A DNA stretch of 64,000 nt. Origin: Ruminococcus sp. (GTDB lineage Bacteria; Bacillota; Clostridia; Oscillospirales; Ruminococcaceae). Numbering within the stretch: the stretch's first letter is position 1; every line of letters starts with the position of its first letter. The notes below the pieces were generated by a model. The model saw nothing but the letters and a program-made list of their open reading frames with translations, was not told the DNA's origin and made no database searches. The position numbers were made by a program, and so were the translations under genes. The stretch covers positions 124,001-188,000 of the forward strand of contig JAJBSV010000008.1 of the NCBI GenBank assembly GCA_020861185.1. Reading direction: 5' to 3'. Shown one piece after another: positions 45,557 to 48,202 of this stretch.

Positions 45557-46618
45557 ATGCGTGAAGAATACAGAAAAGATTGCCCTGCATATCTCAGCGG
45601 CTATCTTACATATGCCGGCTCCGTTGTCGGTCGTACCGATAGAACCGTTGAAGCCTATTATGTTGATATCCGTACTTTTCTAAGATATTTGGTTGCAGTC
45701 AAACACAGTGATGTCAATCTCGAAGAAACTCCTTTTGAGAAAATTCCAATTAAGAACGTTCCTTTTTCTTATGTCAAAGAATTCACGTTGATGGATGCTT
45801 ACGAGTACATGAACTATCTTATAAATGAGCGCAATAACTCAAATAAGACCCGTGCCAGAAAAACGTCGTCTTTGCGTAGGTTTTATGATTTCTTAGCTTC
45901 GTATAGATCTCCGGAGATATATAGGCTCGAAACAAATCCTCTTGACAAGCTAGAGCTTCCGAGACTGGAAAAGACGCTTCCTAAGTATCTTGAGCTTGAC
46001 CAAAGCAAAGAACTTTTGGATGATGTAAAGAGTGAGAATTATCTCCGTGATTACTGTATATTAACTATATTTCTCAATTGCGGCTTGCGACTCAGCGAGC
46101 TTGCTGGATTGGATATTGATGATTACAGCGAAAGTGCAAGAACGCTCAGGGTTTTCGGTAAAGGTCGGAAGGAACGTATTGTTTATCTGAATGATGCCTG
46201 TATTTCGGCATTGAACGCTTATTTGGGGGGCAGACCAAAGTCTTTGGTGGATCCCGATGCCATCTTTTTGTCGTCATATCATGACCATCGGCGGCTTTCA
46301 AATCGTAGAATTCAGCGAATTGTTGAGGACCAACTTGAAATAGCCGGTCTCGGAAACCTTGGAATTTCTCCGCATAAGCTAAGACATACCGCCGCAACTC
46401 TGATGTATGAATACGGCGATGTTGACCCGATAGTTTTGAAGGACGTTTTGGGACATGTCAGCGTTGCTACAACTGAAATCTATACTCACTTATCGAATAA
46501 GGACAGAAAAACTGCCGTCGAAAGCTCCCCTCTTGCAGATATGAAGGCGAATGGTAACGCAGGGAAGCCGTCTGGGAAGTCGGAAGATGATTCGGAGAAC
46601 TCCCCTGTTGATAATTAA
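45557..46618 (+). CDS. XerC/XerD-family tyrosine recombinase
   Basis: 353 aa. N-terminal SAM-like DNA-binding domain (~1-125; NNSNKTRARKTSSLRRFYDFL) and catalytic domain with R in NCGLRLSELAGL, H-x-x-R in HKLRHTAATLMY, and LGHVSVATTEIYTHLS with the nucleophile Tyr. Longer than usual (~300 aa) because of a polar ~35-residue C-terminal tail (Gly/Ser/Asp/Glu). No phage genes are nearby, so a chromosome-dimer-resolving Xer is the best reading; XerC versus XerD cannot be decided. SD is weak (GTGGTG). Confidence 0.88.
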   Translation: MREEYRKDCPAYLSGYLTYAGSVVGRTDRTVEAYYVDIRTFLRYLVAVKHSDVNLEETPFEKIPIKNVPFSYVKEFTLMDAYEYMNYLINERNNSNKTRARKTSSLRRFYDFLASYRSPEIYRLETNPLDKLELPRLEKTLPKYLELDQSKELLDDVKSENYLRDYCILTIFLNCGLRLSELAGLDIDDYSESARTLRVFGKGRKERIVYLNDACISALNAYLGGRPKSLVDPDAIFLSSYHDHRRLSNRRIQRIVEDQLEIAGLGNLGISPHKLRHTAATLMYEYGDVDPIVLKDVLGHVSVATTEIYTHLSNKDRKTAVESSPLADMKANGNAGKPSGKSEDDSENSPVDN

Positions 46619-46648
46619 TTATCTTTAGTTATGATATTGCAGGGCATG

Positions 46649-46683
46649 AAAAATCCTCAAGCATTTAGGCTTGAGGATTTTTT
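46649..46683. terminator. Bidirectional terminator between xer and the Gly-rich gene
   Basis: AAAATCCTCAAGC / GCTTGAGGATTTT stem with an ATTTAG loop and T-tracts in both directions. Confidence 0.9.
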
Positions 46684-46699
46684 GGTAGTTAAAGCAGAA

Positions 46700-46948
46700 T
46701 TATTGCTTCTTCTTCCTTGCTGATCTGACGCCTACTGTACCTAACGTAAGAGTGGAAATCGCACCGACAACGCTCATGACATAAGGCATGCAACAGCTAC
46801 CGCCACAGCCGCGTCTCATTGGTCTTCTTCTCGGCGGGGGCATCATGCCACCTCTTGGTCCCATTCCGCCGCCTCTTGGTCCGCCACCGAAGCCGCCACC
46901 GGGTCCGCCGGGTCCACGACCGCCACCGGGTCCACCTGGTCCGGGCAT
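46700..46948 (-). CDS. Gly/Pro-rich small membrane protein with Cys motif, unknown
   Basis: 82 aa from ATG 46948, 6 bases after AAAGGAGTG; the longer track ORF is not supported. Residues 1-36 are GPGGPGG-type repeats, then an Arg/Pro stretch (PPPRRRPMRRG), a cysteine motif CGGSCC (48-53), one hydrophobic segment (~54-74) and a basic tail RSARKKKQ. Its own strong promoter and terminator make it a deliberate gene. No signal peptide is seen. The repeat DNA (CCACCGGGTCC-like) is unusually GC-rich. I do not recognise the family. Confidence 0.75.
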   Translation of the reverse strand: MPGPGGPGGGRGPGGPGGGFGGGPRGGGMGPRGGMMPPPRRRPMRRGCGGSCCMPYVMSVVGAISTLTLGTVGVRSARKKKQ

Positions 46949-46974
46949 TCCGATCACTCCTTTCTTACATAGTG

Positions 46975-47041
46975 CTTGATTCAATCAAGTCTGGCAAACC
47001 GCCTTGATTTTATTATACCTTAATGTCTTGTAAAAATCAAG
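46975..47041 (-). promoter_or_regulatory. Sigma-A promoter of the Gly-rich gene with CTTGATT repeats
   Basis: Minus strand: TTGATT, 17 bases, TATAAT. CTTGATTTT (47003-47011) and AAAATCAAG (47033-47041) form a 9-bp inverted repeat that brackets the core promoter, and CTTGATTCAATCAAG (46975-46989) is a second palindrome in the leader. Confidence 0.75.
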
Positions 47042-47107
47042 TATTGTATTGTGAAAGAAGTGGGATATTTTGCTGTAAATTTGCACAGTTTTCTTCTTTT
47101 GAGGATT

Positions 47108-48202
47108 TCAATTCTCGGCGTTCGTCCTGATTCTTTCTATGAGCCTTTCGCAAGTCAGATTGACTTGTTCAAAGTCCATAGCCTTGATATAGTAGCTTTC
47201 GAGCTCGTCGTGAATTTCTTTTGCTGTTTTAAGGGCTGAAATCATCTCATCCGTGAGCTCTTTCACAATGCCTTCGTCAAACATAAGCCTTTTGTGCTTA
47301 TCCCTTAAGATGTCTTTGTCATAGAATCTCATTGAATTAATCTTGGTGCCACTGAGGGAGTCGCAGGAATTTCCCGATACAAAAGCGGTTTCTATCTCGG
47401 GGATAATCATGTGCTGATATACGCTTCCAGACAGGAATACGTTTTTGCTTATCAGAACGTCGTATCCGTTATTCTTTGCATATTGCGCAAGCTGTTTCAG
47501 AAGCTTATCGGTCACCGCAAAGCAGTCGTCTTCAATTTTATATACATTCAGGTGCTCAAACAGATTGGTAAAAGTCTTCACGCCTTCCGGAGTAAACGAT
47601 GCCATCTGTCTGAATTTTATTTTGCCTTCGCCTTCGAAAGTTTTCTTCTTCGGAAGAAGTCTTGCGCACAGGCGCTCAAGATATGCGTCCAATTTTGAGC
47701 TGTCCAATGCTGAGTCGCCGACAGACATAATATTTTCGTTTACGGATATTATTGCACTGAGATATTTCTTGGCAAGAGCGTGATATTTCTGATTTCTGTT
47801 GGTCGAGTCGATAATTCCGTCTTTATTCGATGACAGTAATTCGAGATTCCAGCATTCGCCAAGATCGACCAGAACTTCTCGCGCACCGGGATATGCCGGT
47901 TCGATAACATGAGGAGCCGTCCCGTCTGCGATTATAACCTTCAAGTTATCAAACAAAACCGCATCGAGAGAATTCGGGTCGGATGAGCAATAGTAAATTT
48001 CAGGTTCATCCAACTCGGAAATCTCCGAAGCGATTTTTTTCATCAGCGAAGACTTTCCCGTTCCGGGTCCGCCTTTGATGATGTAAGTAGTGAATTCTCC
48101 CGATTCGATATCATCTTTCAGATGAGTTACAAAACCGGTGGGCGTTGAGTAACCCATGAAATACGTCTTTTTGAAGTCGATATTACATTCAGTATTAGCC
48201 AT
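47108..48202 (-). CDS. PRK06851-like P-loop ATPase
   Basis: 364 aa, SD GGAGG about 10 bases before the ATG. N-terminal FMGYSTPTGFVTHL then Walker A IIKGGPGTGKSSLMKKIA and a strand-rich YYCSSDPNSLDAVLFD. The second half (~200-300) resembles a degenerate repeat of the first. I recognise the family as the poorly characterised PRK06851 group found in Clostridia and Bacilli. No partner is adjacent (manA and the Gly-rich gene flank it). Function unknown; ATP binding is the only safe prediction. Confidence 0.75.
   Translation of the reverse strand: MANTECNIDFKKTYFMGYSTPTGFVTHLKDDIESGEFTTYIIKGGPGTGKSSLMKKIASEISELDEPEIYYCSSDPNSLDAVLFDNLKVIIADGTAPHVIEPAYPGAREVLVDLGECWNLELLSSNKDGIIDSTNRNQKYHALAKKYLSAIISVNENIMSVGDSALDSSKLDAYLERLCARLLPKKKTFEGEGKIKFRQMASFTPEGVKTFTNLFEHLNVYKIEDDCFAVTDKLLKQLAQYAKNNGYDVLISKNVFLSGSVYQHMIIPEIETAFVSGNSCDSLSGTKINSMRFYDKDILRDKHKRLMFDEGIVKELTDEMISALKTAKEIHDELESYYIKAMDFEQVNLTCERLIERIRTNAEN

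What the first reader, a model, noticed from the sequence alone, without database searches (positions are those of the whole stretch)
46700..46948. Gly/Pro-repeat, Arg-Pro, Cys-motif, single-TM miniprotein
The collagen-like GPGGPGG repeats, PPPRRRP stretch, CGGSCC and a TM with a basic tail do not match a family I know. A dedicated strong promoter, SD and bidirectional terminator show it is a real, regulated gene. Repeat DNA may vary in length between strains. It might be a membrane scaffold, metal binder or envelope/spore component.
Basis: partly seen in the sequence, partly recalled or inferred. Interest (0 to 1): 0.6.

Follow-up and report, generated by a model that had tools for sequence, protein, structure and literature searches.

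The report
Lineage-restricted glycine-rich small membrane protein
This is a real but uncharacterised small bacterial gene: it encodes an 82-residue, strongly basic, glycine/proline-rich protein with one membrane segment, kept almost letter for letter in one group of related species, and its job is still unknown.

Summary
The minus-strand ORF (46948-46700) encodes an 82-aa protein: a Gly/Pro/Arg tail, a PPPRRRP stretch, a Cys cluster, one hydrophobic helix and a basic end. It is a genuine gene. Orthologs were found in 11 of 31 genomes of the genus. Variation falls at third codon positions (50, against 14 and 5) and pN/pS is 0.12 (0.024 in the Gly-rich part). Promoter, SD and two-way terminator are conserved, as is a 46-bp non-coding block upstream that is better kept than the adjoining coding DNA. 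The 11 carriers form one clade; near outgroups have the same gene pair without it, so it is probably a clade-specific gain. CGGSCC is a local variant; most orthologs read CGGCC. "Collagen-like" is not supported. No Pfam, NCBIfam, PHROG or PDB match exists. Two proteins of the same layout turned up in distant clostridial families at unrelated loci; homology is not shown. Best reading: a vegetatively expressed, tail-anchored membrane miniprotein whose disordered basic tail binds an anionic partner near the membrane. That function is inference (about 0.35). Spore, envelope, metal and toxin roles remain open.

The parts
46700..46948 (-). 82-aa miniprotein gene: Gly/Pro/Arg tail (aa 1-34), PPPRRRPMRR (37-46), Cys cluster (48-53), hydrophobic helix (about 55-74), basic C-terminus
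   Evidence: translation; 11 orthologs, pN/pS 0.12, third-position variation; helix 56-80 in a low-confidence model
46846..46948 (-). Gly/Pro/Arg-rich coding repeat, length-variable between species
   Evidence: pN/pS 0.024; +12 aa in L004, +5 in L009, shorter in L010; GC 0.73 against 0.45 for the window
46957..46962 (-). Shine-Dalgarno AAGGAG, 8 nt before the ATG; the 22 bases before the ATG are invariant in 10 orthologs
46964..47009 (-). 5' leader with three TCAAG/CTTGA words able to pair in two mutually exclusive ways; mostly invariant, so no covariation evidence
   Evidence: folding energy of the leader is not better than shuffles
47012..47040 (-). sigma-A type promoter TTGATT-17-TATAAT
   Evidence: hexamers kept in 10 orthologs while the spacer varies (7 of 17 invariant)
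47050..47095 (-). conserved non-coding block just upstream of the -35, containing CTGT-N8-ACAG; candidate operator or activator site
   Evidence: 33 of 46 bases invariant in 10 orthologs against 30 of 84 in adjoining coding DNA; no second copy in the window
46648..46683 (.). two-way intrinsic terminator shared with the convergent xerC/D-like gene
   Evidence: z -6.2 and -4.7; conserved downstream in orthologs
47108..48202 (-). upstream neighbour: PRK06851-type ('dual-wield') P-loop NTPase; context, not necessarily part of the unit
   Evidence: found in 28 of 31 genomes of the genus, including those without the miniprotein
45557..46618 (+). convergent neighbour: XerC/XerD-like tyrosine recombinase; context

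Best explanation
A clade-specific, single-copy, monocistronic small membrane protein. Shown: it is a conserved protein-coding gene with a vegetative-type promoter and its own terminator. Inferred: it is inserted in the membrane by its C-terminal helix with the N-terminal tail in the cytoplasm; the disordered, +8 Gly/Pro/Arg tail binds an anionic partner (nucleic acid, ribosome or acidic lipid) and so tethers or concentrates it at the membrane; the juxtamembrane Cys cluster and the small-residue helix help it to oligomerise or bind a metal.
For: Orthologs, purifying selection and a conserved control region. No signal peptide; no acidic residue in the window protein; net charge +11 to +15 in orthologs. 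One helix at 56-80 and no other structure predicted. Two distant proteins of the same layout (L122 in G930; L132 in G912) end right after the helix with no charges behind it, which by the positive-inside rule (established knowledge) puts the basic tail in the cytoplasm.
Against: The window protein has about equal basic charge on both sides of the helix, so its own topology is ambiguous. Hydropathy is moderate (1.6-2.1). No partner, expression or localisation data. The model has low confidence (mean pLDDT 59). The two distant proteins may be look-alikes, not homologs: BLASTP finds no alignment of L122 with the window protein.
Confidence: 0.35

Rival explanations
1. Spore or envelope structural component: the Gly/Pro tail lies outside the membrane or in a spore layer and is cross-linked through the Cys cluster.
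For: The genome has Spo0A and SpoIVA. The upstream gene is of the PRK06851 family, whose C. difficile member CD3298 is sigma-E controlled (PMC3789822) and needed for Ca-DPA in spores (PMC10449524). Gly-rich tiny membrane proteins are known in spores (YjcZ type; own knowledge).
Against: Promoter is of vegetative type. No signal peptide. The NTPase and its facing XerC-like gene occur without the miniprotein in outgroups, so the neighbourhood may be incidental.
Confidence: 0.2
2. Metal or redox sensor or chaperone: the juxtamembrane Cys cluster binds a metal or forms a disulfide.
For: Three Cys kept in all orthologs; the two distant proteins also have Cys near the helix (GCGCLPGC, GCLGCGG).
Against: Cluster spacing varies (CGGSCC, CGSSCC, CGGCC, CSGGCC); no metal-handling gene among the immediate neighbours; no family match.
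Confidence: 0.15
3. Small cationic membrane-active toxin (type I toxin-like or bacteriocin-like).
For: Single helix with a lysine end, strongly basic, good promoter.
Against: Single copy at one locus, strong purifying selection including the Gly tail, no export, immunity or modification gene beside it, no match in the phage and plasmid collections.
Confidence: 0.08
4. Spurious ORF in GC-rich low-complexity DNA.
For: Low-complexity, GC 0.73 in the Gly part; overlapping open frames on the other strand.
Against: Third-position substitution pattern, pN/pS 0.12, conserved start, SD, promoter and terminator in ten species.
Confidence: 0.02

Closest known systems
L122 protein (G930) and L132 protein (G912), unnamed, other clostridial families
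   Same: Same order of parts: Gly/Pro/Arg tail, PPPP-RR, RRGC..C or RGCLGC, helix near the C-terminus; own SD; small stand-alone gene.
   Different: Other loci, other neighbours, no basic C-terminal end, different Cys spacing; no BLASTP alignment of L122, so homology is not shown.
YjcZ-type tiny Gly-rich sporulation membrane proteins (own knowledge)
   Same: Very small, Gly-rich before one membrane helix, Firmicutes.
   Different: No Pfam or NCBIfam match; Arg/Pro stretch and vegetative-type promoter here.
Type I toxins such as BsrG/TxpA (own knowledge)
   Same: Single helix with a lysine-rich end.
   Different: Long Gly/Pro tail and a fixed single-copy locus here.
Bacterial collagen-like proteins (e.g. 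BclA; own knowledge)
   Same: Gly/Pro-rich.
   Different: Only 7 Gly-x-y triplets, not beyond shuffles in the window protein; no export signal.

Membership tests
Bacterial collagen-like proteins | long uninterrupted Gly-X-Y repeat | tested here: not met
   7 triplets, p 0.19 against shuffles in the window protein; 10-11 triplets in two orthologs only
C-terminal sorting-signal proteins (LPXTG, PEP-CTERM and the like) | N-terminal signal peptide plus a known C-terminal motif | tested here: not met
   starts MPGPGGPGGG, no signal peptide by inspection; no Pfam or NCBIfam match
YjcZ-type sporulation proteins | match to a Pfam or NCBIfam family model | tested here: not met
   no match at E up to 10 in either library
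Any named Pfam, NCBIfam or PHROG family | profile match | tested here: not met
Tail-anchored membrane proteins | single C-terminal membrane helix with the N-terminus in the cytoplasm | tested here: inconclusive
   one C-terminal helix; topology ambiguous by charge
Type I toxin-antitoxin | antisense RNA overlapping the toxin mRNA, and toxicity | not testable with these tools
   no Rfam match above a gathering score at 46600-47200, which does not exclude an unlisted antisense RNA; toxicity untested

The most novel reading that the evidence does not exclude
The window gene and the two distant look-alikes belong to an unnamed, scattered clostridial class of membrane miniproteins (Gly/Pro/Arg tail, PPP-RR, juxtamembrane Cys, C-terminal helix) with a shared function such as tethering nucleic acid or ribosomes to the membrane.
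Probability: 0.2. Interest if true: 0.6.

Novelty: new member of a known kind. Interest (0 to 1): 0.35.

Why it matters
Small taxon-restricted membrane proteins are a large unexplored part of bacterial genomes. This one is an unusually clean case: a gain that can be placed on a tree at a known site, a near-invariant low-complexity sequence under strong purifying selection, and a conserved control region, so both its origin and its function can be tested.

Tried and rejected
Family, PDB and Rfam look-ups gave nothing usable. Profile searches in 299 family, 394 order and 391 class genomes gave mostly chance-like hits apart from the orthologs, L122 and L132; hits to DUF4190-like proteins (L024, L038; name from memory) were judged chance. 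Phage, plasmid and viral collections: none. Relatives of L122 in its own order (28 genomes): none. A leader RNA switch was considered: arms mostly invariant, energy no better than shuffles. The CTGT-N8-ACAG word recalls the gammaproteobacterial LexA box, but Firmicutes LexA uses another site (own knowledge), so it was not pursued. Paper searches for this layout found nothing relevant. A first DNA alignment mixed strands and was replaced.

Full report
Observation. The ORF is on the minus strand, ATG 46948 to the stop at 46700-46702, 82 aa: MPGPGGPGGGRGPGGPGGGFGGGPRGGGMGPRGGMMPPPRRRPMRRGCGGSCCMPYVMSVVGAISTLTLGTVGVRSARKKKQ. It holds 27 Gly, 12 Pro, 13 Arg or Lys and no Asp or Glu.

Is it a gene? 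A genus-wide search of 31 genomes gave 11 orthologs including the window's; three records from a contig search appear to be some of the same genomes. Ten could be aligned in full; the eleventh (L011) holds a run of unknown bases. Codon columns vary at 14, 5 and 50 sites for positions 1, 2 and 3. pN/pS is 0.12 overall, 0.024 in the Gly-rich part and 0.16 in the C-terminal part. The Gly-rich tail nonetheless changes length between species (L004 +12 aa, L009 +5, L010 shorter). The Cys cluster is CGGSCC or CGSSCC in the nearest relatives and CGGCC, CSGGCC or NCGGCC in the others.

Control region. The promoter hexamers TTGATT and TATAAT, 17 apart, and the 22 bases before the ATG are kept in all ten. 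A 46-base block at 47050-47095 keeps 33 invariant bases, against 30 of 84 in the adjoining NTPase coding end; the promoter spacer keeps only 7 of 17. No second copy of the block was found in the window, and a search of the whole control region in the genus gave no convincing second place (best E 0.002, a short promoter-like match). The terminator hairpin is strong on both strands. The leader has three TCAAG/CTTGA words that could pair in two ways, but the arms are mostly invariant and the fold is no better than shuffles, so a switch is not shown.

Origin. The upstream neighbour, a PRK06851-type NTPase, was found in 28 of 31 genomes. On a tree of that protein the 11 carriers form one group with support 100/99. 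The near outgroups G030 and G003, and the more distant G001, keep the NTPase facing the XerC-like gene with only a short gap and no miniprotein. One gain on the carrier branch is the simplest reading; loss in the outgroups is not excluded.

Wider relatives. No Pfam, NCBIfam, PHROG or PDB match. Profile searches in 299, 394 and 391 genomes of family, order and class gave no clear ortholog outside the genus. Two proteins share the layout: L122 in G930 and L132 in G912. Both have a good SD and stand alone. A layout scan of the 552 kb held found only these two and the orthologs; it is not an independent test, because its criteria were set after these proteins had been seen and the loci were fetched by the profile. 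BLASTP of L122 with the window protein found nothing, and no relative of L122 was found in its own order. Homology is therefore possible, not shown. The E-value of L122 (1.2e-21) is no evidence, because L122 was in that profile.

Structure and topology. The model (8 sequences, mean pLDDT 59) shows one helix at 56-80 and no other structure. Hydropathy of the best 19 residues is 1.6 to 2.1; basic residues are about equal on both sides. In L122 and L132 nothing charged follows the helix, which favours the tail in the cytoplasm for that layout (inference from the positive-inside rule).

Function. The organism probably forms spores: Spo0A and SpoIVA are present. The C. difficile member of the neighbour's family, CD3298, is sigma-E controlled (PMC3789822) and needed for Ca-DPA in spores (PMC10449524); the family is described as dual-wield NTPases (PMC10949312). 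Whether the window NTPase is the ortholog of CD3298 was not tested; its NCBIfam scores are below the curated cut-offs. The miniprotein has its own vegetative-type promoter and the NTPase occurs without it, so a spore role rests on neighbourhood alone. I favour a tail-anchored protein with a cytoplasm-facing basic tail that binds an anionic partner, at 0.35; membrane insertion itself is a prediction, and every later step is inference.

Verdict. A real, orphan, clade-restricted membrane miniprotein gene.

Noticed in passing
window 47050-47095: Non-coding block upstream of the promoter, better conserved than the adjoining coding DNA; contains CTGT-N8-ACAG. Possible regulator site.
   Followed up: partly
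window 47108-48202 (-): PRK06851-type NTPase; one P-loop (GGPGTGKSS) near the N-terminus and no second one seen on reading the sequence, unlike the two-P-loop class of dual-wield NTPases.
   Followed up: no
G000:C5:100173-100478 (outside the window): A second match to the Spo0A C-terminal domain in a 166-aa open frame, besides the one in a 308-aa frame on contig 16.
   Followed up: no
L128 8547-8819 (-); L139 5204-5482 (+): Two Gly/Pro/Arg-tailed, Cys-containing miniproteins with a C-terminal helix in distant clostridial families (G930, G912), without family names.
   Followed up: partly
window 46964-47009: Leader with three TCAAG/CTTGA words that could form alternative hairpins; arms mostly invariant.
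   Followed up: partly
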